Shown here: piece after piece, positions 22,634 to 48,642 of the stretch
How positions within the stretch are numbered: position 1 is the first letter of the stretch
Layout: the number at the start of each line of letters is the position of its first letter
Assembly: GCA_935421135.1 (NCBI GenBank)
Contig: OW285192.1
Location: forward strand, 8,143,501 to 8,207,500
DNA from: Bugulina stolonifera
Taxonomy: Eukaryota > Bryozoa > Gymnolaemata > Cheilostomatida > Bugulidae
Reading direction: 5' to 3'
DNA: 64,000 nt
Position numbers and translations under genes: made by a program
The notes under the pieces: generated by a model
What the model saw: only the letters and a program-made list of their open reading frames with translations
The model's database searches: none
What the model was told of the DNA's origin: nothing

Positions 22634-25600
22634 AGGATCCCTCTCACTAATTACCCTGCTCAGCAAATCTAGTTTTGTGTCAAAATGAAGGCAGCAGCAA
22701 AGTCATGTGCTTCAGAGTTGTGCTCTCAACATATTTCTCCTTCCCATGATGCATCGCGCGATGCGCTAAAGTGCTGCCCTAGGACAAATTTTTGATGAAG
22801 ACACCCTAAACGGCACTTTTTTTATATAAGTTGTATAGAGAGAGGTTTAGTTTTTTGCAAATATTTTCAAAAGTAGCCTGAAATATGCAAAAATAATCCA
22901 TGGGCATATACTACTTGCAACCATGCACCCTTCAATTTATATTACACTCTCGAAAGAAGTTTTATTTTTATAGCTGCCATTGTTTATTCGAAACTATGGA
23001 TTATCATACTAATATCAAATTTTATAAACAAACCAAAGTCACATGACCATGCTAGCGGTCTGCACGTGGTATTTTGTTTACAATACAATTGATCACAGAG
23101 TTAGTACAAGTACCATCTATCTCCGTTCATGTCTATGGGTTGAGTTGAAAATTCATAGTACACAGAAACGCTAAGAATGGCATTCGAAAGTTAGATTTTC
23201 ATTTCATAAATTTCATTTTCTGAAGAACATGAGCTTAGTTTATGGCCAGATTGTCAGCCATCACAATACTCAGCATGGTAAGCATTTAATATTAATATAT
23301 TATATGTACTCATTTTTATTTATTTTGTTTAAAAAACAAACAAATGACTAAGTTTGAAATTAAATATTAAATAAATGATTAATAAAATTGGATAACTTTT
23401 AACACAAAAAGTAAGTCATATGATTATTATATTTCATATCATTACAACATTAGTTGGGCTATATGATGTGATATAATTATAATAATCTAAGTGATTATGA
23501 TTTTAATATATTTACATTACAATACTGTGAAACTAAATTTTAATATTGAATATAATATTCAATTGAGTTTTGACAATGAACTTTACAAAAATGTGAATTT
23601 ATTGTATTGTAATTGTTGTATTAAATCAGTAAATTTAAAATAAGTCTTTACATCTACAATATGCATATTCAAATACAATTTACAATACACATATCCTGCG
23701 AAAATATAGTTAGTTGATTCATTTAGCCAAGCAAAATTTGAATGTAAATGCAAACAATAATTCCATCATAAATTTATTTCTAAAATAATCAATTAACTGA
23801 TCTGGTCTATTCAAGATATTTAAATTACTATATTTAATTTATTCACTCTTTTAACCCCCCCCCCCAAGCTAAATCTAAAAAGTTGGTGGGACTGATACTA
23901 ACTTCATTAGACACAAACTCACCTCTATCTAATGCAGCTGAGCTAACCTAGTGTACTTTTATTTATGTCCACATGGTCAAAATTTCTTTTCGATTAAAAC
24001 AGCCACGCTTCATTTCTAAAGAATTTTATGTTTTTATTGTATTTGTATTTTATGATGTACTCACTGTGTTGATTACAGACTAGTTCCAATGCTGTCAGCA
24101 AGTAACTTTCCTGACATCAATAAAGTCATAGTTGCATTTGATTGTTTGCTGAAAAGAAGGAATGATCTGGTGAGCAGGGTAAAGACGCACACTCACCTTT
24201 GATGAAGAATTTGTAAATCGAATGCCAACCTCAATTTCTACATCCAGTTCTTTCTACTGGTAGGTATTTATAATTTGTTATGTAGGGATAAGGCTCATTA
24301 CAAGGTAGCACTAAAACCTTCTTCTTGAATTCAATTCATGCACAAACTTATAAACTCATTGAGGTAGATTTCATCAGTCTATTCTTGCAAAATGTGAAAT
24401 ACACATGTGTATTTCACATTTTGCAAGAATAGACTGATGAAATCTACCTCAATGAGTTTATAAGTTTGTGCATGAATTGAATTCAAGAAGAAGGTTTTGC
24501 TAACAAAACTGACAACTTATGCAATTTAGGAGGTTTTCATTCCGAAGAAGGTCTTCCTTCTGTACCATATCAAACTAAAATAATATCCAGCTCTAGGAGC
24601 CGTGGAGGCCCCTCGACTAGCTCTGCTATTGGGCAGCCACGTTAAAGAATTGTGTTTGGCGCCATAAATATTATATTGCTATCATTATTTTTTAGCACAG
24701 TGAGATTCCAAAGCTGTATGAAAGAAGGGGAACCTAGCTAGACCAATTCCATGCTACCAGACACTGGCGTGGAAATTCAAACTATTCTACAGCTTGCACT
24801 ATATTATCTTTATCTTCAGTGTTGGAAAAAAGCATAGGTAAGTGTTGTAGCAGTAATATGTTATGTACATCAACTTGGTTATCAGTACTAGTACTCCGGC
24901 ATCAGCTATTCAACAGGGTGGGAAATTCTGTTGTGGGAGTTGAACCCAACCATTGATGTTTTTTCTTCGGAATAGCAATATAATTTTGATGAGGGTCACA
25001 ACCATTTTTCTTAATAAAATGCTCTACATTTTGAATTGCAGATAATACATATTGGATTGCAAAAGAAGTGTTCTAAATGTACATTTCACCCGTACTCCAA
25101 GAGGTTTCCTCATCAAGTAACTTTATAAAAGGTGAAGCGTTATAGTGCCTCAGCATTCAAGGTGAACGATTACGATTGAAAACAATCTTCTGCTGGCGCC
25201 CTACATGGACTGTGTATCTCATTATCACTTCTGCCCACAATGTATATTATACATACACTGTTCATGTTCAATACTTTACACATGTATTTTACCCTGTTTT
25301 CCGATTTTTCATTATTGTATCTTGTTATAAAAAGATAACGTAAATCAACAATAAATGTTTCAAGATATTGAAGTTGAATAGTCATTTGATGTTCTCATAT
25401 TTAATAACTAAGAATGACGATTACATTTTCAGAGAGTACGACAGACCAAATCATTTCAAGCATTTTTGTTGAAATGTGCATGCATCATAGTCAGGCGGAT
25501 TTATACAACATGTACACGTGATTCCATGGCTATTGATTTTAGTCTCCAGCACTTTGCCAAAAGTATACTAACAAGCCTAAATTAATCTTGCAATCATAGC

Positions 25601-27571
25601 TCAGTGTCATAAAACGTAGAGGGCAATAAAACTTTTCTCGAGTTTGTATTGGTAGATAATCAGTAAATTAATGTTCATAACAACAGCACTTACATGTATT
25701 TACAAATGGAAAATTGCGGTTTCATCTAGTAAAATAAACCCTCCCTAAAAACTGGGAAAGATAAGAAAGATAGCACAAAATACATGTCAAATCGAATACA
25801 ATAGTCTATAAAGTATAAATTTTGAGCCGCTTGTATTTTCAATTGACTATGACTGCAAACACATAAAAATGTTTAACATACAATAAATGAGTAATCTTGG
25901 AATTCAAAATAATGACATCTTGGAACAAGCTAACTCTACTCGGCTAATTGCAAATAACCATGAGTGCATAATATTAGTTCTTGTTAACATTAAAGCTTGT
26001 GGATTACGATCGCTTGAAACATGGCAGTAACAATCAAATTAATAAATAGAAAAGATCATTAAGGTAACTGCACAATATAGACAAAATCAAACTAGAATTG
26101 GCTATCACAGACATCAAATACAACATGTACTGTACTCATAGAAATTCTATTTACTGAAAGATCATACATGAAGTATCAGGCCAACTACTAATACATATAT
26201 AAATGAAAAAAATTCCAATTGTGTCAGAATATTAATATTTGAAGGTACCAGTCAATACTTTACAAACCTCACGATTGATTTAGCTGCTCAAATTGTTGGT
26301 GAGTACGTCAGTTCAAGCATGTTGCTTGGTAGATGTTTCTACAACATTATGTGAACATGTGATCATACTATTGGATCACCTAAAAGTATATTAACGTCAA
26401 CAGATGGTACCTAAAATCAGCCCACACTAAGCAACAGAATATAACTGCTAGGTACAATGTACTAGATTGAAAATGATGAATACAAATCAAACCGACGCTG
26501 ATTTTGCTAGGCTACATTTAAAAACCCACAGTACAGGAAAGTAATATGTACATGCAGCAGTGTTTACAGTGAAAACTTTGCTGAATCTTGAAAGTGTATG
26601 ATGCACTTACCTTATGTATACCTATGTAAAACGAGTCAACTTAGTGTCCAAGGTACAATACTCGTCACTCAAGTATGGCTTCAAGAGGTTGCGATTGATG
26701 TGACTTCACATTCCTGGGTCATAGTCTTGACAAACTACTAAAAAGAAGCACACATTACACACATTTTAGTCATCATAGTATTATTATTACAATAGAGAAA
26801 GACAATGAGTTGAATATAGTGTCATCAAAAGTTTATTTTACTTACGGCTGCAATCAAATGATATGATGCAATTATTTTGAAATTCAATAAATTAAATTTT
26901 TGATCAGGTACTGCATATAGGCCTACATATATGTAGACAGAAACAATCCTAGTTAATAAAGTTATTTTTATGAATCCAATATTTTATTTCCAATTTGCAT
27001 TTTATCCATTTTAGTAGAGTTTAAAATAGTAAAGTACATGTAATATGATTTATGAATAATGTATAATATAATTAGCCATAAGTAACTAGCATAGTATTTT
27101 AACAAATCACTTATGTATCAATGTGAGCAAGGGGTAAATAACAATAATTATCATTGCTATATTCACATGTATAGATATTTTTTAATAATAATTACACTGT
27201 GACATAGATAGATCATAGTTAGTACATTAAAATTTAAAATTAAATTAAAATCAAAAAGAAAACAAAGTTACTTTCAATGATTTGATTGCAATTTTTGCTA
27301 TGCTTGCCATATACCTTGTATCGTATCATCTCTCGATAGCATTTACATCTTGCAACAATAATTTCATTTTAGCAAAAGCAAAATACTATGTTCTATTCTG
27401 TCCACCGTCAACTGATTCCCATCGATCACCCGATGGATTTTCCCACGCGTGTACATGCACATGCGATTTAGTTAGCCAATTATAATACAGTGCAAGTAAC
27501 CAATCATTATGTTTGCTCTAGCGATCACGTGGGTGTCTCAAAGTGTAAACAAAAACGGTGAGAGGGGTCCT
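22634..27571 (+). mobile_element. TTAA-flanked 4.9 kb element, copy A
   Basis: TTAA lies directly outside both ends (22630-22633 and 27572-27575). The ends are AGGATCCCTCTCAC and, inverted, AGGACCCCTCTCAC: 14-bp TIRs with one mismatch. Copy B at 43871-48488 is its inverse over the full length. A 331-bp segment (25496-25826) is present only here. The interior is AT-rich with no ORF above about 71 codons. It holds a perfect 186-bp palindrome at 24313-24498 and a C11 run at about 23,865. TTAA targets are typical of piggyBac and some Sola elements, but the TIR is not one I recognise, and the element must depend on a transposase from elsewhere. Confidence 0.9.
24313..24498. repeat. perfect 186-bp palindrome (copy A)
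   Basis: Two 93-bp arms meet without spacer at ACACA|TGTGT (24405/24406). Every base pairs. The arms start AAAACCTTCTTCTTGAATTC and end in the reverse complement. The same palindrome lies at 46607-46792. Confidence 0.97.
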
Positions 27572-27579
27572 TTAAGTTT

Positions 27580-30040
27580 AAATTTGATTATTGGATACCT
27601 TGCTCCATAATACAGCTGCATAGCGCTTCTATTAAATGATTTGATTGTCCAATTTGAGAGGTTTCAAGAGGAAATTATGGTTTGGTACAACCTGTTCTAG
27701 TAAAATAATTTTTCATCTGTGCAATATTTGAAATAAGTTGGCATGTTTAGGCCCCTTGGGGCGTATACACTGCAGGTAGCCTTAGACCAACAGTCTGGTT
27801 TAATAATACAACAAGTTTACTTCTAATAATTCTAGAAAAGCAGTTAGATGAATATTTGATTTGTTTGTGAATGCATGTACATGTGTATGTATGTAACATA
27901 TTATATTTCTTGAAGGCCATCGAATAAATCTCAAACTTGCTGATGGTGGGCGTGCCAGATGACCAAGATCTAGGCAATGTTCTCTCTCACGAATCCTGTT
28001 CTACAGAAGATATGTAGTTGAGCATGGATCAAACCTACCTAAAGATGGCAGAAGTATTTACAAGTACACTGTAAGTGTATTATGTGGTTAACATAAATTC
28101 ATGTGATAAGGCTGTTACCTACTAATATAGGTCTACTGATATTAGGGCTATGCTGTAGTGTTTAGGCCTAGGAGATGGAATGGAGCGGAGGGGCTGCTCT
28201 TTGTCGCAGTTTTTCTTGAATAGATATTGGGCTTACTTCACTTTGTACAAATCATTGGCCACAAGTGTCGGCCTACCAATTTATTTAAATATATTGCCAA
28301 TGCTGTTCTGCTTTACATTATTTTGTGGCAGCAGTGATATATGCTTGGGGTAGAGAAACTATTGGACGTGGTATTTTGAATTTGAATAATCCTGGTAGGG
28401 TTGTTGGTATATTGCAACAACATGTAGGGTTGGATCACTATGGATCACTGTAAATACCTAATAAAATGTTGGTGCTGAGATGGGTTCAGCTTGTGTCAAG
28501 TGATAGGAGTTACAGTGTACAGTGTAAAATGTTGCATCTCATCAGAATTAATAATCAATCTATAACTGAAACACAACCAGTTGAAAATCTTGAATTCCAG
28601 GACCAAAAGACTAACACTGAATTATGAAATAATTTCTAATTTAAGACAGTATCAAGGAAGACCATGTAAGCTACAGAAAGGGTGGAGCAGGCATGAGACT
28701 TATGGCAGCATGCTACGTCGCTTTAATGACTGACTATTGATGATTTATCAGACAGCAATATGCGTTAGTGATAATCTATTCCAGTATCTATTGTAAGATG
28801 GGTAAAATATTACTAGATAATTACATGTAGGAATGTGGTAAACTGTTTTTTCTACTTTGTACAGTCTTTACTAAAAACCAAGACTAAGTGTGTCATACTG
28901 TCAGTAGTGATTACTGTTGAACATTGTAATAGGCCGCTAACTTCACTTTGGACAAATTATTGGCGACATTACTGCTACTGGAAGGCCCATATTATATTAC
29001 ATATACATTGCATTTTTGGTTTGGAATCAAAATAATTACTTTCAATTACGTACAAAACTAAGTCTAAGTTTGTTCTTACTTTCTCTCTATTTCTAATTGG
29101 AATTATGACCAATAGCTTTGATTTATGTGTGAACTGTTGCGTGCTCTCTGCAATAGTTTAGGTTCAAAGACGTGGATTTAGAAAGACAAATTTCTGGAGT
29201 TACATGTACATGTATATAAAGTTAATACTGGAGTTTGAGTACATTTGCATGTGTGCTGCTTGCTGTATCATAAAATTTATAACCCAAGTTCTTAGAACGG
29301 GTCTGTAATCTTACAAAATGGTGATTAAGGGTTCCAAAAACAGCACCAAAAAGGAACTTCCTCGACCCTACTGCGCTTTGTTGAATTGGTTGAACTACAT
29401 GTACATCCAGAATACACATATTGATGTGCATCTTGACTGCATCATTATAACGTATAGCCTAAGTTCCTTTATTAATAACAGGTGGCATGCACGACGATGT
29501 TATGGCAGACCTACCATAATTTCTACCAGAGAAAATGTCAAATACTACATTAAGCCAGTTTGCAAAGGAACCTTTTACTGTTTTTGACTGGCTGTTGAAC
29601 CACACAGAGCCAAATTTCGTAGCCTTAGCTCTTAAAAATAGAAGTAAATATTGAAGTTTCCAAAATATTCAGCTGCTTTAACTCTACCAAACCTTGTGTA
29701 ACCAGTTGACATCTGTTCCCAACCCAGTGTATCGGATTAGGTACAGAAGTGGTAAAATTTGGGATAGCCTTTGTTCTTCGCCAAAACTGAAGCAGGACAA
29801 GTTGTTCTCTCTATATTTTGTTGGTTGACCGCCCTTACCCCAACCACAAACAAGGAACTAAGACTATTTAAAGTTCTCTACTACTGCACCTAACAGAGTA
29901 TATCATGCATATGGTAATTTTATATAAATTTATAGCCTTAGATTCTTTCGAAATTAGAGGGTGATCAGCGCAGTTATGTTGCGGTGGACCCCCGCCATCA
30001 TTTTCAGCACGAAAAGTTACCCCAGAAAAGTCTCTTGGTA
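27580..30040. other. no gene recognised; interior of candidate TIR element
   Basis: AT-rich. ORFs of 66-89 codons (e.g. 29318-29587) have no recognisable protein features and no splice support. Confidence 0.35.
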
Positions 30041-30819
30041 TGTCTCAAGGAAATTTTTTTACGAGTTTCAAATATTAAGCACTCTTTTGGCCTCTTGCTA
30101 CCGGACTATAAATAATGCTGGTTGATTTTCATACAGACTAGCAAGCCTTTGTTTAAGTAATGTGAGAAAAATATAGTAAACCACAGTAAAGCACAGCTTC
30201 TTTAAATTTAGTGACATCTAATTCAATTTTGTATGCTTCCGGTAGAGTGGTAGAGAATATAGCTCTAATTTTGACACAAGATAATAATATGCGATTATTA
30301 TGTGCAAGAGTAGACAACTTCTTTTATAGTCAGCTTTGGGCTAGGATTGTTTGTACCTCAACAGTTAAACTCTTCACAGAAACTTTTGCTTCACATGTTG
30401 CTCAAAGAGGAAATGTCTATAAATGAACTAATCTCTTGGTCTTATATATTATACAGATACTTAGTGCTAATTATCACTCAACAAGGCAGATTGGGCACTG
30501 CTCCATGCTGAAGATACATGCTCACACATTAAAAAGTGCTTTCTACATGTAAGTTCATGGTCCATGAGCTACAGAAATACCCGAGTTGCACCATGTGCAG
30601 TGTTCGGAATGACTTCTTTAGTAACTGGTGTTATAAAACACCATGCTTTGTCCAGTTGGATTTGATTAACTGGATTACTTAGCCATAGATTTTGCTAAAA
30701 TGCAAAGGAAATGTAGAGCTTCAAAAACCGGAGTATTCAGCGTAAATAGGGAGATTTGGCATGTATATGTATGTGTTTCGTTTTACTGTCAGTGCGTTGT
30801 ATTAGCGTTTTGTCAGGCG

Positions 30820-30965
30820 TTAGAAAACCCAGTTTTAGAGCTGGGTTCAAGTCACAGATCTGACTTGATTTGCCAAGTTAAGTCTAAGTCAAGTTGACTT
30901 GTGACTTTACTTGACTTGCCAAGTCAGGTAAAGCGACAAGTCGACTTGACTTGGACTTGCCAACT
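30820..30965. repeat. AAGTC/GACTTG low-complexity repeat
   Basis: It opens with GAGCTGGGTTCAAGTCACAG and continues as overlapping CAAGTC/GACTTG words. The same opening (AGAGCTGGGTCCAAGTCATAG) starts the larger stretch at 48,643. Confidence 0.7.
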
Positions 30966-31469
30966 TGCTGACTGACTTTGTCTAGCAATAGTTCTTTAGC
31001 TTATGAGGGTGTGATGAAACTGTGGGATGGTCGGGTAAATAGTATATGTGCGTGTTGTTGTAGGTAGGGTGAAATATGCCACACTCAGTTCATCAACTAG
31101 AGAAGAGGGGAAGCTGTGTGGGTTTTCAGGAGGCCCGTGCAGACAAATACGTCAGGATGTATTAACCAGTTCTTTGTGTATATGATAAGGGGACAACTTA
31201 AGGACGACCAGCAACCTGTTATAACTAAATAACTCACTCTGAATATCACAACTGATAGCGGATTGCTGGCTCAACAAACAAGATACTAAGGAGTGCAAGG
31301 CTATATTTAAACCCTATAGTCTATATCCTATATGTACAATTGTATATGCAATATAAATCCACTTCAAATTTTTTTCGTGTTCATTTTCTATTTGACTTCT
31401 AAATACACAATCTATTTAACAAGACAACAGAGAATATACATACAATACACACATTAAAATACAAAGCTA

Positions 31470-31571
31470 CTGATTTAGTATTTCAACATAGTAAGTCATA
31501 AATATTTTATCTACTTACTGCAGTAAGTAGATAAAATATTTATGACTTACTTTGTTGAAATAATAAATCAG
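31470..31571. repeat. ~102-bp near-perfect palindrome
   Basis: Arms of about 51 bp meet at CTG|CAG (31520/31521) with only a few mismatches in the outer part. The inner 35 bp per arm are perfect. No coding sequence. Confidence 0.9.
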
Positions 31572-33271
31572 TAAGTGAACAATAACATAACGTCGTTTCT
31601 GTTCATACTTTCTGCGATACAATTATACAATGTAATATCAGGCTTATTTCTAATTAGTTAAAATATTCATATAATGTATAAAATAAGACATCAGTTATGT
31701 CAGTCTGCCATAGGGAGCCTGGTTATCTATATAATTTCTATTGGCTAGCTAAGGAAGACACTGCAGGATACTAGATAACTGTTACTGTAATTTCTAACAT
31801 AATTATCTGTATGGGCTATAATATAGTGGAAGGGCGTGACTATCATGGTTGTACGTTTCTCTGTGGTGACAGTTCTTTTTAACTTCTGTTGTACAAGAAG
31901 TTGAAGAGCGTTGCTTAGTTGTGTTGGGTGTTTGGTCCTGTGTTGTTCATTCAGGAGTTGCTTCCACTTTGAGAATGTTGCATATAAATAATGACAATTA
32001 GTATATTTAAGAGTTGTCCACTCTTGCGCACTTGAGAGAATGTAACTCCTCACTAAAATTGATTGGCTGACTGTAGATAGGACAGGTATATATAAGAGAG
32101 GAGTACCTACACAGTAGAGTAATCTCAGTAGAGAGATAAATAGACAGATACCTAGAGTAGACTGTGAAAATGAGGCATGGAGAGACAGCAGTATAGACTG
32201 TCGACATACCTGTAGATAAGTCACACAGTGACAAGAGTGGACGACTACATAGACGTTACACGTACATATTATACAAATGTATAAGCTAGTGGAAAACACG
32301 AAAATGAAAGAAAAACTATAAAATAAAAAAACCAAATAAAAACTAATAAAACACTAAAACAAAAACACTAAAAACTAAACTAAACTACAATAGTGTGGAG
32401 CGTGTGGAGTGTAGGTGGATCGTAGGCTACCCAGTAACTCAATGACATATCAATGCGTACTAAGGAGTAAGGATATATGCGGAACAACTATCTTGTTGTA
32501 GACCTTGGAATAGAGTCGACACCGCCACATCCTAGACCACAAAACCAGAACCTACGCCACACAGCTTACTACATTGGAGATCAAGGTGCTGACAAAAAGA
32601 CCTACAGACAGCGTACTACTACTACATGCTACGTACAGCTGGTGAGTCCTAAGTACTTTGGCTCCAACTAAATGTTATAACTGACAATACCAAAACCCTC
32701 AATTTTAGTTATAACAAGAAGATAACTTCTCTTCAACAATGTTTGTACTACTATGGAGTTGTCTTCTCTAGAGCTATGGAGTTCTTACTGGAATGTTTAT
32801 TTTGGAGTATGATAATATTTATAAAGTTATGTTATTCATTCTTTACAAGGGTACATAATGACAGCTTGTTCACTCGCCTTTAGGTTTGTAGGTGTCTTGG
32901 CAGTACAACTTCCATTTAAAATCATAGCAAATACAGACCGTATTTGTACCATACAAAACCTTTTAAATCCTGCAAACGATTGCATTAATATTGTTAAAGT
33001 ATAACTGTACACGTACATGTATGTGTATGCGAAATTGATAATTTGTAGTTGTCCGTTCTTGAGCACTAAAGATATGGTTACTCCCACTATGACGATAATG
33101 CAATAAATAATGGATGTCAACTCACAATAAATCTAGTCTAATCCAGTGTTGGAATTGGAACAAATGGGGTGGGTACACATGCATTTGTAACCTTGGCTAT
33201 TAGTATTGTACAGCTATCCATCTAATCCTATAGTAGCTAAGAAATTGTTGAATTACTGAAAGGAAAAAATT
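31572..33271. other. no recognised gene
   Basis: A 196-codon minus-strand open frame (31745-32335) has a hydrophobic, Ser/Thr/Tyr-rich composition and no motif I recognise. On the plus strand a TATATATAAGAGAGG box lies at about 32,089-32,103 and an AATAAA cluster at 32,320-32,355, which could be an LTR-like promoter and poly(A) region. The coding status is unsupported. Confidence 0.3.
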
Positions 33272-33345
33272 ATGCTCTGGTGAATTTGAACCCAAGACCC
33301 TATGGATAATAGTCAAGAACTCCACCACTACACCATCAGGTCCAC
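33272..33345 (-). repeat. tRNA-derived SINE head
   Basis: The minus strand has TGATGGTGTAGTGGTGGAG (A box) and, about 40 bp later, GGGTTCAAATTC (B box). Only the tRNA-related part is evident. Confidence 0.6.
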
Positions 33346-34876: not shown

Positions 34877-34885
34877 CTTAATAAC

Positions 34886-37800
34886 TAGGGCTGGAACAAA
34901 TCCAAAAATTTTCGAATCTGACGATTCCGATTCCTGACACCATGCAGATTCTCGATTCCGATTCCTAAACGATTCCGCGTGGAATTACTCGTTTTAACAA
35001 ATTCAATATCTTTTGTCACCAAATAAACCATGTAATCAAACTGTATAAGCATATTTCATCTGCTATTCACTGTTAGTTTGTAGATGAGGACATTGATGAA
35101 TGACTACTGATGTACAGCTCAACTTCAACCTGTACTACTAATTCATGACTGTCTAGTTGTGTTTGATTATACTATATTAATTATTATTGCGATTTCATGT
35201 TAACACACATGATTATTGTTTAGAACAGAAAGATCCGTATTTACAATATTATAATTTTCTAACAACAACATATTATATAGGCCTAAATAGTTATACGCAA
35301 ATACATGTGCATATACATAATGTACCATATAATATCAAAACAAAAATAAACTAAAATTCAAAATACGGAAAAGGAAGGCTGATGTTATCGTTATTGTCAT
35401 TTATAAACCTAGAGTATCTATGTTTTTGTTAAGGAATAACAGCTGGTTGACAGTCTCAGGGTGGAGAGAACTCCTTCTAGCGCTGACCACCTCACCAGCT
35501 TTTGAGAACAATCTCTCTGAAGCAACTGATGTTGCTTGTACTACTAAATGTTTTTTGGCAACCAAGCTTAGCATGGGATAGTGCTTACAGTTTTGTTTCC
35601 ACCACTGATGGGGACAGTCGTGCAATGGCAACAGAGTTTCATTGAGATAGCGCATGAATTCCAGCTCGGCTCTTTCATGAACTGTTGGTACACTTGCTTG
35701 CCCAGTTTCAGTTGGATCTGATTGATCAACATCAAATATAGAACTCAGCAAACTTGTAATAGCAGGTGTGTTACTTTGGGGTTCTTTTGTAGCACCACTT
35801 TCCATAGATTCAACAATAACTGGCTGACCACACTCATCAGCAGACAGCTTCTCTGAGATCATTCGCTGAACCATAAGCTCCTTCATGTTATCTTTCTCCG
35901 CTTTTTTTAAATATGGAAGCAACTTAAATCGAGGGTCAACACAAGTACTCTCTCGGAGAAACTTTTTCAAGTTTGGCTCCTCATAGCGTGTAACCAAGTC
36001 ATCATGAATGGCATTCTTCATTAGCTTTATTGTTGCTGAATCGATATCACTGACTGTTAGACGAGCCATCATCTTTTGGAGAAGAGGTTCAATTAGCGAT
36101 ACAGTACATTTAGTTTCTGAGCTCATAACAACTGAGGCCTCCTTAAAAGGTGCAAGAACATCAGCAATGGAACGTAGCATGTCGCTATCACTGTGTGATA
36201 CCTGGTGTACAAGATCAGTGGCTCCTGTCATTCTCTGCTGCTGTAGAGTTGTCACTGCTAGGTATACTGGATCACGCTGCTCTAAACAGGGTTGAGAAAA
36301 AGAAACATTGATGAACTATGCAGGCCACATTTATATTGTTTAACCAATGCACAGTTCAACAACAAACAGTAGGTCACTCGGCATTGAATAGTAACTAACT
36401 AATGAAAACAGCTATGGAAATGATAGGGGCGAGTTGCTCAATCATAAAGAGTAAGATGGTGAGGTGATAACCAGGGATAACATACCAAAATTAAATAAGA
36501 GCCGAATGCAATACATACCTATAAACCTCTGAATCATGTCAAATGTGCTATTCCACCGTGTCACAACATCAATAACCAACTTTGATGGTTTCATATTCAA
36601 CTGAGCTTGCTTTTCCTGCAAAAGATATAATATTATGATATATTATAATAAAATAATTACTTGCAGCAGACAGCAGTAGTAGCATTAATCTCTGTTCTAT
36701 CATATTATAGTGTCTCTATTTAAAAACAGAGCCACGGATTGGATATTTTCTAGTATACAGTAGGCTATTTAGCAGTCTGTAGTTTGTGAATCTTGATGAT
36801 TGCCTTTGATTCTTGATGGACTGATGACCAACATTTGTTCACATTACCAATACCTAGTAACAATTTTGATTTCTCCAGAATATAATATGGAGGTTAAACT
36901 GAAACTGGCAATCGAGTAAATGATTGTTAATGAACATGATTGTGTACTAACCTTTAAAATTCCCATAGCCTTTGGACTTCGGTGAAAGTAACCACATACT
37001 CTTCTCACTCGAGCCAAGATGTTGGAAATCGAGGTCAAACCTAGTCCTTTCTGAACCGATAAGTTCAGTGTATGTGCAAAGCATCGCATGTTGTCATATT
37101 CTGTTTCCTTAATTGCTTTTACCTGATTAGCAGCATTGTCAGTAGTAATGTAGAAGGGTTTAGGAACACTGGGAATCCATCTGCCAACTAAGTCAATGAG
37201 ATATTCAGCGATGTTGGTACTTGTGTGAGATTCATTGAATGCTGAGGTTTCCAAGATGAATGTTTTCAATGACCATTCAGAATCCAGAAGATGCAGAGTA
37301 GCAGTAACATAACTGTCTGTCGCTCTGCTGGTCCATGCATCGGTTGTCATTGCCATGGCTTTGGCTTCACTAATCTCCTTGGTTACACTGATCTTAGCTG
37401 CATTGTATTCTTCGCCGATTATGTTTTTAATTGTTTTTCTGCATGGTATGGTATATCTAGGCTCTAACTGTTTGACTAATCGCCTGAAACCCTTATCTTC
37501 CACCCAGCTTATGGGTTGCATGTCCAAAGCTACCGCCAACGCTATATTTCTAGTAATAGCCTTTGATCGCTTGCTATTTGAATCTAGGTAAAGTCAGTTA
37601 ACTTGGACTGAGACTTGTCTAGTGGTCTTTTTTTCGCATTAGGCTTCTCTAAAATATTGATATCGTGGACAGTCTTCAAGTGTTTCCCCATCGATGATGT
37701 TGAGCCCGATTTGTAGCTTAAACTTGCAAGACATTTTATACAAATTGTTATGTTTTCTTTCTTTTTATGTAGTCTAAAATATTGCCAAACAGGGGAAGAA

Positions 37801-38194
37801 GCATTAGTTGGTAGATATAACTCTTCCTGAGATGAATTGGACTTGGTTTTAGGAGTTGCTGTAGTTTCACTAACATTAGCGACAGCATCAGTTTGAATTT
37901 CAGCCATACTTGTTGCTCAACTGCTAACGTCTGCTTATGCCGGAAAGGAACTCCGAATAAAAAGGCATCGTTTCATATGAACTTTACTAACATAAAGAAA
38001 ATTCAAAAACTTTCAGTGTTCATTTTGTTCAACATTTTTTATTAATAATTAAATAATTTTCTAAATAATTGCTACAAAAAATAACAAAAACTTTACAATG
38101 TTGGATTCGAAACTGAGCATTTTGGAACCGAGATTCGGAACCGTGCCTAAGGTTTCGGAATCGGATCCGGATTCGTGGATTTGTCACAGCCTTA
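34886..38194 (-). mobile_element. complete hAT transposon, 3309 bp
   Basis: A perfect 8-bp target duplication TTAATAAC lies at 34878-34885 and 38195-38202. The ends are TAGGGCTGGAACAAATCCA and, inverted, TAAGGCTGTGACAAATCCA. The subterminal regions contain several GATTCCGATTCC / GGAATCGGATCC words in both halves. It carries a single spliced transposase gene on the minus strand and no cargo. Confidence 0.93.
35401..37907 (-). CDS. hAT transposase, BED finger + RNase H fold + hATC
   Basis: Exons: 36952-37907, 36519-36615, 35401-36281. The introns are GT/AG and in phase. The N-terminus (ATG at 37907) has a BED zinc finger: VWQYF, then CIKC and HLKTVH. The catalytic core shows TTDAWTS (first Asp), TTDNAAN (second Asp), RCFAHTLNL and VTRWNSTFDM. 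The C-terminus has QWWKQN and the hATC dimerisation motif SVASERLFSKAGEVVSARRS. It ends at TAA, 35401-35403. This is the complete domain order of an active-type hAT transposase. One apparent frame change lies at about 37,584-37,595, just after KLTDF: the upstream frame stops at TAG while the downstream frame begins immediately. No convincing intron explains it, so this copy is probably recently inactivated or carries a sequencing error. It cuts and pastes the surrounding TIR element. Confidence 0.9.
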
Positions 38195-38905
38195 TTAATA
38201 ACACTTATATAAACAGTTTTATGTCATTCACTTGTCTAGCCTTGCCCACTTAGCCTACCTCTGTACTATATTTTCAATGACTCTAGTGAGGTGAAGCAGG
38301 TCAAGGGTTGCCCCACATTAACACACTGAGCAAATGGGAGAACTAAGGTTATTCCAGCCATGTGGTCGCTCCTACTTACTACTTCTACTGGCTAATTAAA
38401 TAGACTGTAATCAGGGTTTATTGTTACCCACATCAGAGCATCTAATAAGGAATACTCTCAGCCTTCTGACACGTACCTTACTGCGCTTACTGTGCTCATG
38501 TTGTGGTTGTCTCCCAGACGGTCCCAGATGGACCAAGGTCTGTACACAAGCCACCGACGACTTGTAGGTGCAGATGCAGAGAACGGCTACCTAGCCAAGC
38601 AACCTCTATGCCAAGTTATGTTTCATGTAGGGTGGAATGTTCAATTTATCAATGCACCAGTACAACACAGAATATAAGTATTAAGAGTGTATTGAGCAAA
38701 CTTGACAGCATGAAGGTATACAAGAGACTGTACTTACTAACGATAATCTGGTTCTTTTTATAGGTAAAGGAGACGAAGGAAGCTGTCTACTACTTCCGGC
38801 AGGTTCCAGTCGTTAACATATAGCCCATTTAGAAAAGAGGACGACCCAAGATACAGCCGTCCTCATACAGATAAAGATATGCTTGAATGCCATTACTTAT
38901 AATAT

Positions 38906-39252
38906 TGTAATGTTTACGTACAGTTCTCCGCAACCTCCTTACACTAATTACATGTATACTCATATAAATATCTGCTTTTATTCCTTGTTACTTAGTTGAC
39001 TATAATGTGTATGCTTGTACATGGCTCTAGTAAGACATTACACTGTTTTTATACCCATGTAAAGAAGCCCGACCTCTCAGAATTACTTGATATTCATTTT
39101 GTATGTCAATTGGATGATTCTAAGCATCTTTTGTAATAACCCGACCCATTTTGGGTTGGCATTTGGGCGTCCGGCCGCCATGTTGTTGCACAATTTCTGG
39201 ACGACCCTAAGTCATCTTTTCCCGACACTATGTCGGCCTTTTTACCGGAACT
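38906..39252 (+). mobile_element. truncated LTR, plus strand
   Basis: It starts ATAT|TGTAATG, the LTR terminus seen in the family. It aligns with 41,190-41,395 from ACCCATGTAAA.AAGCCCGACC through TTTTCCCGACACTA.GTCGG. The promoter and poly(A) part are missing. It ends against the tail of the last exon of UNC93A-like copy 2. Confidence 0.6.
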
Positions 39253-40934
39253 TCCTCATTAAATGCTCACTTTCTTTCCTAGAATTAATACAGGGAAGCA
39301 AAACTGGTCATTTATTAAGTTTTTATTAGGACAAAATATTACAAGAAGTTTAAGGACATTGTGTGTGGTGAAAAAGTAATAGTTATTATAGTAATAATCA
39401 GAGCTACTACAGTCTGTATTACTGTATACTGCAGGCAAAATAGGTATCGCTAAAGACTGCTCAACTTTATTTCTTTTTTTCTCAATGAGCTCCACAGTTA
39501 TATAGCCTATGGCACCTAATGTTAATAAAGAGAGTAACAAATACATTTTTATAGACATATAGAGGCGACTTTGGATTGCAAATAATGTCATGTAGCCTGC
39601 TGCCTTCCATAATCTATTAATGGCAAATGCTGCTTTACCCTCTTGTTTGAACAGAACTCCGTAAAGGCCTACAGAATAAATGCAAAATATTACATGCATG
39701 GTTACACTTGACCCTGGGATTCTCGCATCTCTAAAACTTTTAGTGGCTGAAAATCAGATGAAATTTAGAAGTTGCTCATCATCTTTTAGGACTACATGTA
39801 TGTCTATGTTAGATTAGCTTTTCATTTCGTTTTTAAATGGCCACATGACCAATTTTGATTGCTGCCGAAGTGAAATTAAATTAACTGCTTATTTGGTCGA
39901 ATATTTACTCATTTCTAAAAAAGTTCAAAATCAAGTTGACATTTTCTTGCAGTTTTTATGAAGGCGAGTTTAACTTAACTCCTTAGCTACTAGAATTTTA
40001 ACTGAAAAAGTAAATCAATGGTTAATTTTGATAGATTGGCCAATCAACGACTTTTGATGCGTTCATGACTCCTATGCTTTTATGATTTATGCTTTATGAT
40101 CATTCCAAACAACTACTACTCGTTTTATCCTCTGGTGATGATGCTCAGATGAGCGCTGAAATATTATGAAAAAATTAAAATGAGAACACATCTTGTTTTA
40201 CTATTCATAATAGAAATACAAACTTACATTAACATTTTTCCGTACTCAACATGGTATTGGTTCAAACCCAGTTCAAAATCATTGAAGGCAGTTTAGGATT
40301 TCATTTTAAAACAAGTAAAATAAAAGTATTGAATTGTAGGATACAAGCAATCAAAGTGTGATCTTTATCTTGGTTGTAGATGATGCTTCACCTAGTTACA
40401 TGTGCATGTATGCATATAATAGCTCATGTTCGCAAATAACGTTTCATATGTCGAAGAGTTTAAGACTACTATAAATTCTAAAAGTGTTGGTCAAAGTTTG
40501 CTATATCAGCTGATAGCTTCTTCCAGTTCTGTTAATCACCCATTTTGACTGAGTTTTGAGAATAAATGAACTCATTGAAGTCATTTTTCAGCATCTTTAT
40601 TACTAGTCATCAGAGAACTAAATCATGGAATGGCAACGCCATACTGCTAACACAATATCTCAATTTGGGAAAAATAGTTTGAACGCAAAATGTAATACTT
40701 GAAGGCAAAACGATATTATATCTCAAGACAGATATGTGGGATTGCTTCCATGCAGCCATTACAATTTCAACCATGATAAGGCAACATCTGTCCAACTCAT
40801 TTGCTTTTACTCTATACTGAGGGTGGTGAACATTTAAACTATTAAGCATTGCTGATCCGCTGGCCCGATGAACTAACATGTTTAACAAACATTTCCCTCT
40901 TTCCGAGTGTGTGTGTTAGTGACAACAGAAATAT

Positions 40935-41730
40935 TGTGATGGTACAGGACATTTGTATACGACTCCAGCTACCGGATAAAACCCTATAGCACCTTAAGTG
41001 CCTAGTAGTTGCCACAGCACTACTCAACTAACACTCGTACTCTCATAACTAGCTGTTCGTATGCTCATACTCAATTATATTGCATGTCTAGACCATTCAT
41101 TCACTGTCTATATACGTGTATTTATGTGTTTGTACTCATTCTACTTAACTACATACTGTTGTACATTCATGTATGATAATTACAAGTCTTTTAGTGCCTT
41201 TTATACCCATGTAAAAAGGCCCGACCTCTCAGAATCCCTTGATATTCATTTTGTACATGAATTGGATGATTATAAGCAACTTTTGTAGAACCCGACTTAT
41301 TTTTGGGTCGGCCGTCGGGCTTCTGGCGGCCATGTTGTTGCGCAACTTCCGGACGACCTATGTCATCTTTTCCCGACACTACGTCGGGCGGAAGTCTTCA
41401 TACTATATAAAGGCCACTGTTTCATTGTTTGTTGTCTCAGTCTTCACTTGGCTTTCAATAAAGACACATCTATACTTGATACAGTGACTTTCACTTCCTT
41501 TTGTCAGGTCATTCGCTTAGCGAACCGCCTACTAGGTCGGATCACTCTCTTTCAAGGTATAGTCTGAAGGTCAGACTTGGGACCAAATGGGTCGTCTCTG
41601 GTAGTTATTGGGCTACTGAGACCGCTCGATCTTTCATGTAATGCGAAGGCCTAGCACCACTCATAAGCACTTCAATTCTGAGTCGGTAGTCGTCCAAGGA
41701 TGACCGCACGAAATACCAGAAACCATTACA
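40935..41730 (+). mobile_element. solo LTR, 796 bp
   Basis: It begins TGTGATGG and ends CCATTACA, with ATAT duplicated on both sides (40931-40934 and 41731-41734). It has TATATAAAGG at 41,404 and AATAAA at 41,457, in LTR order. The intron text on either side is continuous in copy 1 (around 905-960), so that position is the empty site. No internal retroelement coding remains. Confidence 0.8.
41404..41413 (+). promoter_or_regulatory. LTR TATA box
   Basis: TATATAAAGG lies about 50 bp before the AATAAA at 41,457 within the solo LTR. Other family members have TATATAAGGC at the same place. Confidence 0.6.
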
Positions 41731-43870
41731 ATATAACTATTAATAGCTCTATCCTACCGCCAAAGGAGTTGTGTTTGTTAGGTACTTTACTTCGTTGCTC
41801 ATACAATTCTTTATTTTTTGCTGTTATTTTGGACATTTCACTTTCAGTAAGAACCAAACTAACTAATAGCCTGTAAATTCTCAGCCTCTGATATTTATTA
41901 CAGCTTGCTATGAGCAATTCCACACCTAACCATAGTTGCCCTTTATGGATTATTTTGCCCTGAAATGGAATGAAGCAAGTTTTATGAGAGACCTTTCATG
42001 GTACAGTTTTAACCAACTACTAGCCTGGCTAACCATAGGTATATGACATAGAGGCAAGGGTCAGTAAGTGATGGGACTTTCCACTTACCAAGTTCAACAA
42101 GCTAAACTTTGAACCCCATCACTAACTGGCAGTGCAAGCTATAATATAATAGGCTCTATAGATAACCACATTGTGGTTATCTACTAGCGTCCCAGTGACC
42201 ATGTGCAATGTGAAAGCCATCAGACACTCAATATGTAGATGAATCAATTAATCAATGACAGGAACTTGATAAACAGACTACTGTGGGCTCATGATCTTTC
42301 TCCACAATGCATTATAATTGGGATCAATTTATTTCAAGGCTACATTTTTTAGTGGCTAAAGTTACATGTACACACTGTTTTTCACCTCCAAATAATGATA
42401 TTTTTCGCTTCCAAATGTCATTTTTACGCTTTCAATATTACATTATTTTTGCTTATAATCCCATGATCTTTTGAAAAATCAATCTCTATGAGCATGGCCA
42501 TGGTACACCAAATAATATAAAGTACATAACGCATAAGATAATACACGCTTAGATGTATATCATATTATAGCAAGACAATGCCTGTTAGCTGAACACTTAG
42601 CGCCCCGTCTGCAATGCCCCAGATTCCAGCGAGTATGAAGTAGATGTAGAGTTTATCTGTTGTCACTTCATAGAATAAGAGTGGCAGCAATGCTGCTGCA
42701 TTAGCTATGAACCCTGGAAGAACAATCATAAAACAATTTGTGTTGTAAAATTCAAGACTGGAGTTTTACAACACAATTATCCATTTTGGAAACATTATGG
42801 CAGCAACCCTTAAAGTGCTATTAGGACATATCAAAGTTATTTTCTGGATCATTACCTAATACAAAGATGAGCACTCTTCCAGCATATTTCACAAGCCTTC
42901 CCAAGACTACAGAACTGACACCATCAATCACACTGTAACATATGGCTACGTATCCAACCCGCCAACTACCAGGTGGACAGGTGATGAACGCCTGTTTAAA
43001 TGTATAAGCAAAATCAGCATACATACCTAGAATAACAGAATTGATTAATTGCAGTAAATTAACCAACAGAGTAGAATATTAAAGGTGGACTGTACTGAAA
43101 TTTTGGGGTTATAAGCTGAATACACCATTAGAAAGCCTAGTAGCAGCTGAACAAGTTAGCACAATACCAGCTGGGAAACGTGATGTCATCATGGTACCCA
43201 GCTCTGCTAAAACTAGTGAAACACATCATTGCAGGGAGTGAATGCCAGACCACGCATTATGTTATTATGAATAGAAAATTTCAATTGAGTTTTTATCCTT
43301 GTTGTACTAGGAATATCACAAAACGAAAAAATGGGTATGTAGAACTAATGTTAGTTAATATTCTTAAACAATCAAAAGCACAATTTGTTGCAAAAAGTTA
43401 TCAAATGACTTTTGAGTTTGCGATCTGATTGGTCAATATGGGCTACTTGTTTATCTCATGAATAACAAGCCAACACATAGACTGGTGTGTTGAACCTGTA
43501 GCATGTAGTACTATAACTGCTATTATCTGTTTTATTAAATGAACACTGTATTTCTGATAAAGCAGTTGTGACAACTCAATATTTCTGCTATATAGCGAGT
43601 CAGAGTTGAGATAACCAAAGAAGAAGTTTTGAGAATTGACATAGAACTAGGTGGAGATAACTCCTAATGCTGACATCACTATGGGTAATTTAGAAATTTT
43701 GGGACCACTTTTTTGCAGTTTAGCATCTGTTAGCTACTACTAAAACAGTTTAGATATGTTTGTATAGGTATCAAGTAATGCTAACATAGTTAATTTGATG
43801 AAAAACATTCTGAAATTTTCAGTACAGTCCAACTTTAATGTTCTGAAATTGGGGTTGTCAATAATATTAA

Positions 43871-46800
43871 AGGACCCCTCTCACCGTTTTTGTTTACACT
43901 TTGAGACACCCACGTGCTCGCTAGAGCAAACATCATGATTGGTTACTTGCACTGTATTATAACTGGCTAACTAAATCGCATGTGCATGTACACGTGTGGG
44001 AAAATCCATCGGGTGGTTGATGGGAATCAGTTGACTGTGGACAGAATAGAATATAGTATTTTGCTTTTGCCAAAATGAAATTATTGTTGCAAGATGTAAA
44101 TGCTATCGAGAGATGATACGATACAAGGTATATGGCAAGCATAGCAAAAATTGCAATCAAATCATTGAAAGTAACTTTGTTTTCTTTTTGATTTTAATTT
44201 AATTTTTAATTTTAATGTACTATGATCTATCTATGTCACAGTGTAATTAATATTAAAAAATATCTATACATGTAAATATAGCAATGATAATTACTGTTAT
44301 TTACCCCTTGCTCACATTGATACATAAGTGATTTGTTAAAATACTATGCTAGTTACTTATGGCTAATTATATTATACATTATTCATAAATCATATTACAT
44401 GTACTTTACTATTTTAAACTACTAAAATGGATAAAATGCAAATTGGAAATAAAATATTTGGATTATAAAAATAACTTTATTAACTAGGATTGTTTCTGTC
44501 TACATATATGTAGGCCTATATGCAGTACCTGATCAAAAATTTAATTTATTGAATTTCAAAATAATTGCATCATATCATTTGATTGCAGCCGTAAGTAAAA
44601 TAAACTTTTGATGACACTATATTCAACTCATTTTCTTTCTCTATTGTAATAATAATACTATGATGACTAAAATGTGTGTAATGTGTGCTTCTTTTTAGTA
44701 GTTTGTCAAGACTATGACCCAGGAATGTGAAGTCACATCAATCGCAACCTCTTGAAGCCATACTTGAGTGACGAGTATTGTACCTTGGACACTAAGTTGA
44801 CTCGTTTTACATAGGTATACATAAGGTAAGTGCATCATACACTTTCAAGATTCAGCAAAGTTTTCACTGTAAACACTGCTGCATGTACATATTACTTTCC
44901 TGTACTGTGGGTTTTTAAATGTAGCCTAGCAAAATCAGCGTCGGTTTGATTTGTATTCATCATTTTCAATCTAGTACATTGTACCTAGCAGTTATATTCT
45001 GTTGCTTAGTGTGGGCTGATTTTAGGTACCATCTGTTGACGTTAATATACTTTTAGGTGATCCAATAGTATGATCACATGTTCACATAATGTTGTAGAAA
45101 CATCTACCAAGCAACATGCTTGAACTGACGTACTTACCAACAATTTGAGCAGCTAAATCAATCGTGAGGTTTGTAAAGTATTGACTGGTACCTTCAAATA
45201 TTAATATTCTGACACAATTGGAATTTTTTTCATTTATATATGTATTAGTAGTTGGCCTGATACTTCATGTATGACCTTTCAGTAAATAGAATTTCTATGA
45301 GTACAGTACATGTTGTATTTGATGTCTGTGATAGCCAATTCTAGTTTGATTTTGTCTATATTGTGCAGTTACCTTAATGATCTTTTCTATTTATTAATTT
45401 GATTGTTACTGCCATGTTTCAAGCGATCGTAATCCACAAGCTTTAATGTTAACAAGAACTAATATTATGCACTCATGGTTACTTGCAATTAGCCGAGTAG
45501 AGTTAGCTTGTTCCAAGATGTCATTATTTTGGATTCCAAGATTACTCATTTATTGTACGTTAAACATTTTTATGTGTTTGCAGTCATAGTCAATTGAAAA
45601 TACAAGCGGCCTGACTATGATGCATGCACATTTCAACAAAAATGTTTGAAATGATTTGGTCTGTCGTACTCTCTGAAAATGTAATCGTCATTCTTAGTTA
45701 TTAAATATGAGAACATCAAATGACTATTCAACTTCAATATCTTGAAACATTTATTGTTGATTTACGTTATCTTTTTATAACAAAATACAATAATGAAAAC
45801 AGCGGAAAACAGGGTAAAATACATGTGTAAAGTATTGAACATGAACAGTGTATGTATAATATACATTGTGGGCAGAAGTGATAATGAGATACACAGTCCA
45901 TGTAGGGCGCCAGCAGAAGATTGTTTTCAATCGTAATCGTTCACCTTGAATGCTGAGGCACTATAACGCTTCACCTTTTATAAAGTTACTTGATGAGGAA
46001 ACCTCTTGGAGTACGGGTGAAATGTACATTTAGAACACTTCTTTTGCAATCCAATATGTATTATCTGCAATTCAAAATGTAGAGCATTTTATTAAGAAAA
46101 ATGGTTGTGACCCTCATCAAAATTATATTGCTATTCCGAAGAAAAAACATCAATGGTTGGGTTCAACTCCCACAACAGAATTTCCCACCCTGTTGAATAG
46201 CTGATGCCGGAGTACTAGTACTGATAACCAAGTTGATGTACATAACATATTACTGCTACAACACTTACCTATGCTTTTTCCAACACTGAAGATAAAGATA
46301 ATATAGTGCAAGCTGTAGAATAGTTTGAATTTCCACACCAGTGTCTGGTAGCATGGAATTGGTCTAGCTAGGTTCCCCTTCTTTCATACAGCTTTGGAAT
46401 CTCACTGTGCTAAAAAATAATGATAGCAATATAATATTTATGGCGCCAAACACAATTCTTTAACGTGGCTGCCCAATAGCAGAGCTAGTCGAGGGGCCTC
46501 CATGGCTCCTAGAGCTGGATATTATTTTAGTTTGATATGGTACAGAAGGAAGACCTTCTTCGGAATGAAAACCTCCTAAATTGCATAAGTTGTCAGTTTT
46601 GTTAGCAAAACCTTCTTCTTGAATTCAATTCATGCACAAACTTATAAACTCATTGAGGTAGATTTCATCAGTCTATTCTTGCAAAATGTGAAATACACAT
46701 GTGTATTTCACATTTTGCAAGAATAGACTGATGAAATCTACCTCAATGAGTTTATAAGTTTGTGCATGAATTGAATTCAAGAAGAAGGTTTTAGTGCTAC

Positions 46801-48488
46801 CTTGTAATGAGCCTTATCCCTACATAACAAATTATAAATACCTACCAGTAGAAAGAACTGGATGGAGAAATTGAGGTTGGCATTCGATTTACAAATTCTT
46901 CATCAAAGGTGAGTGTGCGTCTTTACCCTGCTCACCAGATCATTCCTTCTTTTCAGCAAACAATCAAATGCAACTATGACTTTATTGATGTCAGGAAAGT
47001 TACTTGCTGACAGCATTGGAACTAGTCTGTAATCAACACAGTGAGTACATCATAAAATACAAATACAATAAAAACATACAATTCTTTAGAAATGAAGCGT
47101 GGCTGTTTTAATCGAAAAGAAATTTTGACCATGTGGACATAAATAAAAGTACACTAGGTTAGCTCAGCTGCATTAGATAGAGGTGAGTTTGTGTCTAATG
47201 AAGTTAGTATCAGTCCCACCAACTTTTTAGATTTAGCTTGGGGGGGGGGGGGGGGGGTTAAAAAAGTGAATAACTTAAATATAGTAATTTAAATATCTTG
47301 AATAGACCAGATCAGTTAATTGATTATTTTAGAAATAAATTTATGATGGAATTATTGTTTGCATTTACATTCAAATTTTGCTTGGCTAAATGAATCAACT
47401 AACTATATTTTCGCAGGATATGTGTATTGTAAATTGTATTTGAATATGCATATTGTAGATGTAAAGACTTATTTTAAATTTACTGATTTAATACAACAAT
47501 TACAATACAATAACTTCACATTTTTGTAAAGTTCATTGTCAAAACTTTATTGAATATTATATTCAATATTAAAATTTAGTTTCACAGTATTGTAATGTAA
47601 ATATATTAAAATCATAATCACTTAGATTATTATAATTATATCACATCATATAGCCCAACTAATGCTGTAATAATATGAAATATAATAATCATATGACTTA
47701 CTTTTTGTGTTAAAAGTTATCCAATTTTATTAATCATTTATTTAATATTTAATTTCAAACTTAGTCATTCGTTTGTTTTTTAAACAAAATAAATAAAAAT
47801 GAGCACATATAATATATTAATATTAAATGCTTACCATGCTGAGTATTGTGATGGCTGACAATCTGGCCATAAACTAAGCTCATGTTCTTCAGAAAATGAA
47901 ATTTATGAAATGAAAATCCAACTTTCGAATGCCATTCTTAGCGTTTCTGTATACTATGAATTTTCAACTCAACCCAAGATAAGAAAGATAGATAGTACAG
48001 TATCTTGGTACTTGCAATAACTCTGTGATCAATTGTATTGTAAACAAAATACCCCGTGCAGACCGCTAGCATGGTCATTGTGACTTTGGTTTGTTTATAA
48101 AATTTGATATTAGTATGATAATCCATAGTTTCGAATAAACAATGGCAGCTATAAAAATAAAACTTCTTTCGAGAGTTTAATATAAATTGAAGGGTGCATG
48201 GCTGCAAGTAGTATATGCCCATGGATTATTTTTGCATATTTCAGGCTACTTTTGAAAATATTTGCAAAAAACTAAACCTCTCTCTATACAACTTATATAA
48301 AAAAAGTGCCGTTTAGGGTGTCTTCATCAAAAATTCGTCCTAGGGCAGCACTTTAGCGCATCGCGCGATGCATCATGGGAAGGAGAAATATGTTGAGAGC
48401 ACAACTCTGAAACACATGACTTTGCTGCTGTCTTCATTTTGACACAAAACTAGATTTGCTGAGCAGGGTAATTAGTGAGAGGGATCCT
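43871..48488 (-). mobile_element. TTAA-flanked 4.6 kb element, copy B
   Basis: This is the inverse of copy A over its whole length. TTAA lies at 43867-43870 and 48489-48492. It lacks the 331-bp segment of copy A (junction near 45,609). It has a G18 run (47,240-47,257) where copy A has C11, and scattered substitutions elsewhere. It sits in the intron between the 42856-42991 and 48551-48608 parts of UNC93A-like copy 2. The matching intron of copy 1 (12,640-12,690) has an uninterrupted TTAA at the same place. Confidence 0.92.
46607..46792. repeat. perfect 186-bp palindrome (copy B)
   Basis: Identical to 24313-24498 over all 186 bp and centred at 46699/46700. The flanks match copy A in inverted order. 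Confidence 0.97.
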
Positions 48489-48642
48489 TTAACTTCCTTA
48501 CAACACTATAGAATGAAGCGTAAACCACAAGATTTTAAAACATTTTAAAGCCACCAGAATCACAGCAATGGATGAACACCCTGCGAATACTCCAGCCAGC
48601 GTATACAACTGCAACAATTATTATGGTTTACATCCACATTGT

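What the first reader, a model, noticed from the sequence alone, without database searches (positions are those of the whole stretch)
22634..48488. Two inverted full-length copies of an unclassified 4.6-4.9 kb TTAA element, 16 kb apart
Seen directly: both copies have TTAA outside each end and the same 14-bp TIR (AGGAYCCCTCTCAC), and are inverse to each other along their entire length. TTAA duplication with such a long, protein-free interior is not a form I recognise. TTAA targets are known for piggyBac and some Sola families, but the TIR does not look like either. The arms could pair as a giant inverted repeat enclosing the hAT element and part of UNC93A-like copy 2.
Basis: partly seen in the sequence, partly recalled or inferred. 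Interest (0 to 1): 0.85.

Follow-up and report, generated by a model that had tools for sequence, protein, structure and literature searches.

The report
Non-coding Kolobok transposon with its partner
The two inverted copies are ordinary passengers of a recently active jumping-gene family (Kolobok type) in an animal genome; no gene was found in them, and they probably move using an enzyme from a much longer relative with the same ends elsewhere in that genome.

Summary
Copies A (22634-27571) and B (43871-48488) are inverse copies of one element with 14-bp inverted ends and TTAA on both sides. Their flanks are unrelated: two separate insertions, not an assembly duplicate. In the 235-Mb genome the 14-mer occurs 126 times, 121 preceded by TTAA. 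Twenty-one of 31 extracted copies give a 4,851-bp consensus, matched at 97.3-99.8%; the best pair is 99.94% identical. A paralogous empty site at window 43181-43607 has TTAA once where copy L041 has it twice. No coding sequence was found in the 4.85-kb form. Decisive: a 24-kb element on contig C3 with identical ends and TTAA flanks shares 435 and 53 bp of terminal sequence with the family and carries an intron-split transposase with DDE residues, a DAWH motif, an H2CH finger and a weak THAP-like exon. It is homologous to other Koloboks of this genome. So this is a non-autonomous Kolobok family with a probable autonomous partner: a new member of a known kind. Activity of the partner was not tested.

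The parts
22634..27571 (+). Copy A of the non-autonomous Kolobok element, T-end (AGGAT) left, C-end (AGGAC) right
22630..22633 (.). TTAA flanking copy A, left
27572..27575 (.). TTAA flanking copy A, right
22634..22647 (+). 14-bp TIR AGGATCCCTCTCAC of A
27558..27571 (-). 14-bp TIR AGGACCCCTCTCAC of A
43871..48488 (-). Copy B, inverted; lacks 331 bp that A has
43867..43870 (.). TTAA flanking copy B, left in window
48489..48492 (.). TTAA flanking copy B, right in window
22634..23068 (+). Approximate T-end region of A shared with the 24-kb partner (435 bp; 95.4% between partner and family consensus)
   Evidence: window coordinates approximate because A has small indels
27519..27571 (+). C-end region of A shared with the 24-kb partner (53 bp; 92.5% between partner and family consensus)
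24313..24498 (.). Perfect palindrome (two 93-bp arms, no spacer) in A; its 24-bp core marks four places in the genome
46607..46792 (.). The same palindrome in B
43181..43607 (-). Repeat that serves as a paralogous empty site for family copy L041; single TTAA at 43355-43358 where L041 has TTAA-element-TTAA

Best explanation
Both copies belong to one non-autonomous Kolobok-superfamily DNA transposon family of about 4.85 kb in which no gene was found. It moves by cut-and-paste: a Kolobok transposase supplied in trans by a longer element with the same ends (23,966 bp, contig C3:18631917-18655882; one such element found) recognises the AGGAYCCCTCTCAC ends and the adjoining subterminal DNA, excises the element and inserts it at TTAA, duplicating TTAA. 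Shown: ends, TTAA duplication with an empty site, copy number, near-identity of copies, no detectable coding sequence, and a same-ended element with a Kolobok-type transposase gene. Inferred: that this partner is expressed and active, that it mobilises the short form in trans, and the cut-and-paste chemistry. The short form is not a simple internal deletion of this partner, because only the outer 435 bp and 53 bp match; its 4.36-kb interior is foreign to it.
For: 121 exact TTAA+TIR ends, control 0; 121 of 126 unselected exact TIRs are preceded by TTAA. Empty sites: L041 against window 43181-43607 (90% over 428 bp, one TTAA at the junction) and L012, nested in another family copy (the consensus reads TTGA at that place, so the interrupted copy must have differed by one base). 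Copies 97.3-99.8% to consensus, best pair 99.94%. Kolobok: TTAA duplication and 5'-RR/YY-3' ends (PMC9587614, passages); Xenopus T2-MITE has TTAA+AGGRR, and XKol A3 ends are AGGACATGTCAACCCC/AGGACGTGTCAACCCT (PMC6004289, passages). Kolobok DDE exon hits inside the element with the family's exact ends, E 3.2e-8 and 3.4e-5. That element: TTAA flanks, exon-by-exon tblastn to Kolobok pieces and proteins down to E 8e-14, ends 435 bp at 95.4% and 53 bp at 92.5%. Open, splice-like exons, alignment with GGDGRCD, SDRH, YDAWH, H2CH and the E of CEAWH, THAP-like exon E 3.7e-4. Host Koloboks typed by THAP and P2RX7_C.
Against: The partner's THAP-like exon scores 21.6 bits, below Pfam's 23.9 cut-off, and its joined DDE exons pass no Pfam cut-off (MULE E 0.019). 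A database search with the joined DDE found nothing at E<=1e-3; the link to Kolobok rests. KolX was not found in the partner. The genome search for further copies of this transposase did not complete. The exon joins are partly my guess. Expression and activity are untested.
Confidence: 0.93

Rival explanations
1. Non-autonomous piggyBac-type element: TTAA target, moved by a piggyBac transposase.
For: TTAA duplication is shared with piggyBac (passage; here).
Against: Ends begin AGG..., the RR...YY form that the literature contrasts with piggyBac. The only transposase found in an element with these ends is homologous to Kolobok, and a Pfam scan of it lists no piggyBac domain at E<=1. No search of the genome for piggyBac transposases was made.
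Confidence: 0.02
2. The 4.85-kb element is itself autonomous: its transposase or another mobility protein is split into small exons not recognised here.
For: Other Koloboks of this host are intron-rich: the longest frame holding a transposase piece of L050 is 134 aa, so the lack of long ORFs alone is weak evidence. Copies are very uniform.
Against: Longest consensus frame 78 aa, below the mean maximum of 97 for 200 Markov sequences. tblastn of ten Kolobok exon/KolX pieces against the consensus gives nothing better than E 0.5, while three of the same pieces hit the 24-kb partner at E 1e-7 to 1e-13. Of 77 THAP and 25 KolX hits, no THAP and one KolX (19.4 kb away) lie within 25 kb of the 100 listed of 121 exact ends. 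Ten small frames have no Pfam match over cut-off (one sub-cut-off match, DUF2417, E 0.0044).
Confidence: 0.04
3. The two window copies arose by an inverted segmental duplication, or the inverted pair is one functional giant inverted repeat.
For: The two copies are inverted along their whole length and both carry the palindrome whose core is found at four places only.
Against: The 1-kb flanks beyond the TTAA are unrelated on both sides, and many dispersed single copies exist.
Confidence: 0.01

Closest known systems
Kolobok superfamily DNA transposons (PMC9587614, passages seen; first description by Kapitonov and Jurka as cited there)
   Same: TTAA target duplication, RR...YY ends; the same-ended partner has a DDE transposase with a C/DxxH motif and an H2CH-like finger, and a weak THAP-like exon
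   Different: No transposase was found in the window elements; KolX, typical of the Kol0 lineage, was not found in the partner
Xenopus T2-MITE and XKol families (PMC6004289, passages seen)
   Same: Non-autonomous TTAA elements with AGG ends, presumed to be mobilised by Kolobok transposases; XKol A3 full-length elements also begin AGGAC
   Different: T2-MITE motif is AGGRR, here AGGAY; MITEs are short, this family is about 4.85 kb; no sequence comparison beyond the printed ends was made
Kol0-type Koloboks of the same genome (e.g. L050, C8:4840600-4850400)
   Same: Related, intron-split transposase; same host
   Different: Candidate ends begin AGTGG or AGAGG (L050, L052, L053), not AGGAYCCC; they carry KolX
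KolobokP (PMC9587614)
   Same: Superfamily
   Different: KolobokP has long terminal direct repeats; none seen here

Membership tests
Kolobok superfamily | TTAA target-site duplication | tested here: met
   121 of 126 exact TIRs preceded by TTAA; empty sites
Kolobok superfamily | 5'-RR ... YY-3' termini | tested here: met
   AGGAY... at both ends; definition in PMC9587614
Kolobok superfamily | DDE transposase with C/DxxH motif, in the partner with the same ends | tested here: met
   none detected in the family's 4.85-kb form; definition
Kolobok superfamily | H2CH-type zinc finger between second D and E | tested here: met
   HLQGLHKHPMNVQYTQCQH in the partner, aligned with P0001, P0004, P0006; described
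Kolobok superfamily | THAP DNA-binding domain (usual) | tested here: inconclusive
   partner exon E 3.7e-4, 21.6 bits against a cut-off of 23.9; described
Kol0 lineage of Kolobok | second protein KolX (P2RX7_C) | tested here: not met
   no PF20478 hit in the partner's stretch and no tblastn hit with L050's KolX at E<=0.01
KolobokP | long terminal direct repeats | tested here: not met
   longest direct repeat within copy A is 27 nt at 74%
piggyBac | piggyBac-type transposase with these ends | tested here: not met
   partner transposase shows no piggyBac domain at E<=1; Kolobok homologues found instead
Sola | Sola transposase with these ends | not tested
   no Sola query was run; the Pfam scan of the partner lists MULE and THAP only

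The most novel reading that the evidence does not exclude
The uniform 4.36-kb interior, foreign to the same-ended partner and without detectable genes, is not inert filler but cargo that helps the element persist (a non-coding transcript or regulatory DNA), so that a long gene-free form was amplified instead of a short MITE.
Probability: 0.05. Interest if true: 0.5.

Novelty: new member of a known kind. Interest (0 to 1): 0.25.

Why it matters
It assigns an apparently unclassifiable TTAA element to Kolobok through a same-ended, transposase-bearing relative, and gives a clean pair (gene-free passenger and probable driver) that looks recently active, useful for annotating this genome and for studying how Kolobok transposases recognise ends. 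It does not change the view of how such elements work.

Tried and rejected
Long copies as autonomous forms: those fetched are ordinary family copies with inserted DNA; in L009, L010, L011, L017, L022, L023 and L024 the inserted frames look retroelement-like by my reading (no domain search), in the others the insert was not identified. I had passed over the 24-kb element at first because one search listed no frame of 150 aa or more in its two fetched parts.

TIRs with other subterminal sequence: exact TIR followed by A or G, 0; TIR with up to 2 mismatches and non-family subterminal bases, 3 hits against 3 in the control, one of the 3 being a family copy's own end; one-position variant, 2 hits, one of them by its spacing the other end of a family copy. 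These searches could not show the 24-kb partner because its subterminal DNA is the family's own; the transposase search did. L049 (THAP, 521-aa frame), fetched as a candidate, was set aside as not Kolobok-like; P/THAP9-like is recall, no search was run on it. Stretches beyond the KolX gene of five host Koloboks were read, one side each: L052 and L053 have TTAAAGTGG candidates, L051, L054 and L055 were unclear, none has AGGAYCCC. Rfam on the window at gathering cut-off: 0 matches. Origin of the interior: one 146-bp patch (consensus 1821-1966) is 86% like window 61711-61856; nothing further in the fetched DNA. A versus B as a local hop: not decidable, since two more places with the palindrome core exist that I did not obtain. 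Host species: not identified.

Full report
OBSERVATION. The inverted pair is real. Nine arm pairs of 96-100% complementarity join 22629-27580 with 43862-48493. The 14-mer AGGAYCCCTCTCAC, searched without TTAA, falls exactly on the four ends and nowhere else in the window at up to 2 mismatches; 0 of 100 shuffles gave as many matches. Each end abuts TTAA. Copy A is 4,938 bp and copy B 4,618 bp, 98.76% identical over 4,596 sites with a 331-bp gap in B. The 1-kb flanks of A and B share no BLAST similarity at E<=1e-3, so the copies are separate insertions and not an assembly duplicate.

THE FAMILY. The window lies in an unnamed 235-Mb genome of 27 contigs. TTAA+TIR occurs 121 times exactly, the reversed pattern 0 times. 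Of the 100 ends listed there (of 121), 86 form 43 facing pairs, 24 of them spanning about 4.84-4.95 kb, and 14 are single. The TIR without TTAA occurs 126 times (reversed control 1), so 121 of 126 are preceded by TTAA. With up to 2 mismatches there are 230 matches, control 15. I extracted 31 elements of under 10 kb with both exact ends, one AGGAT and one AGGAC (2 in the window, 29 from fetched loci; here TTAA on both sides is by selection). I aligned 21 of the 31, leaving out nine longer than 5 kb and one of 1.4 kb. The consensus is 4,851 bp with 32.4% G+C; copies match it at 97.3-99.8%, median pairwise identity is 98.5%, best pair 99.94%. The family has thus been active recently. The longer forms that I fetched are family copies with inserted DNA, some of it retroelement-like by eye, except the one below.

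TARGET SITE. For 31 flank pairs I asked whether an unoccupied paralogue lies in the fetched DNA. L041's flanks match window 43181-43607 over 428 bp at 90%, with one TTAA at the junction (43355-43358) where L041 has one on each side. L012 sits inside another copy of the family: its joined flanks with one TTAA align through the consensus at 92%, although the consensus reads TTGA at that place. L013's flanks match window 21079-21340 at 80%, but the alignment is gapped beside the junction and the window has TTAG there, so this third case is not clean.

NO CODING SEQUENCE FOUND. The consensus has no frame over 78 aa, against a mean maximum of 97 in 200 Markov sequences. Ten small frames, two of them versions of one, have no Pfam match over its cut-off; 24 consensus frames of 45 aa or more exist, so not every frame was scanned. 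As Koloboks of this host are intron-rich, I also compared ten exon and KolX pieces with the consensus: nothing better than E 0.5.

WHAT MOVES IT. Kolobok transposons duplicate TTAA and have 5'-RR...YY-3' ends, unlike piggyBac (PMC9587614, passages). Xenopus T2-MITEs have TTAA+AGGRR ends, and full-length XKol A3 elements begin AGGAC (PMC6004289, passages). Kol0 Koloboks encode a second protein, KolX, proposed as the source of the P2X7 C-terminal domain (PMC9587614, passages); that PF20478 is this domain was recalled and is borne out by its Pfam name and by P2X7 structures matching L050's KolX. This genome has 77 THAP and 25 P2RX7_C hits, with 19 THAP-KolX pairs within 12 kb, one of them a cross-pair between tandem copies. 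One such element, L050, gave THAP (E 3.9e-11), a sub-cut-off Mutator-like PF20700 match (0.0025) and P2RX7_C (1.2e-17). Searching the protein database with L050's joined DDE exons gave seven relatives, two with PF20700 and one with THAP precomputed.

THE PARTNER. Searching the genome with the same query gave 90 hits. Two, at C3:18636088-18636300 (E 3.2e-8) and C3:18635089-18635271 (E 3.4e-5), lie inside an element bounded by this family's exact ends at C3:18631913 and 18655886. That element is 23,966 bp long with TTAA on both sides. It matches the family consensus only over 435 bp at the T-end (95.4%) and 53 bp at the C-end (92.5%). Exons on one strand, reading away from the T-end, match Kolobok pieces and proteins down to E 1.4e-13 (L050) and 8e-14 (P0002). 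Several boundaries have splice-like GT or GC and AG (my reading, and some joins are guesses). The alignment shows GGDGRCD, SDRH, YDAWH, an H2CH-like HLQGLHKHPMNVQYTQCQH and the E of CEAWH. Catalytic roles are assigned by alignment and by the literature's description, not tested. A THAP-like exon scores 21.6 bits, under the 23.9 cut-off. KolX was not found. A database search with the partner's joined DDE gave nothing at E<=1e-3. A genome search for more copies did not complete.

MECHANISM. Most likely this partner's transposase, or a close relative's, binds the shared ends and moves the 4.85-kb form in trans by cut-and-paste into TTAA. Ends, target duplication, copy uniformity and the transposase gene in a same-ended element are shown; expression, activity and trans-mobilisation are inferred. 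The short form is not a plain internal deletion of this partner; its 4.36-kb interior has another source. One 146-bp patch of it resembles window 61711-61856 at 86%.

THE PAIR IN THE WINDOW. A and B each carry a perfect 186-bp palindrome whose 24-bp core is found at four places genome-wide, three of them on contig C6. They seem to belong to a small subfamily, somewhat older than most aligned copies (97.3-97.5% to consensus against 98.5-99.8%). The giant inverted repeat they form encloses a hAT gene (Dimer_Tnp_hAT E 4.8e-21), but nothing that I saw suggests it acts as a unit.

NOVELTY. A new family of a known superfamily. The listings of five searches of the held library show no paper that by title or abstract describes it; Repbase could not be searched.

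Noticed in passing
G000 C1:23106082-23121405: Two Kol0 Kolobok copies lie head to tail exactly 8,449 bp apart with identical THAP, DDE and KolX hit scores, like a tandem multimer.
   Followed up: no
window 24313-24498 and 46607-46792: Perfect 186-bp palindromes without spacer in both window copies; the 24-bp core occurs at four places in the genome.
   Followed up: partly
window 61711-61856: 146 bp, 86% identical to the element interior (consensus 1821-1966) but outside any copy; possibly another repeat that contributed to the interior.
   Followed up: partly
window 35404-36315 (-): hAT transposase C-terminal region between the two copies (Dimer_Tnp_hAT E 4.8e-21).
   Followed up: no
window 31468-31573: 53-bp inverted arms with no spacer (96%), A+T-rich, MITE-like by eye.
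   Followed up: no
L049 (G000 C1:31757400-31760400): THAP protein with a 521-aa open frame, then a second 236-aa frame; looks P-element/THAP9-like by recall only.
   Followed up: no
G000 C4:9938818-9977606: Six THAP hits with identical scores at spacings of 6,901 bp (one gap of 11,014 bp), a tandem array with two in-frame TGA each.
   Followed up: no
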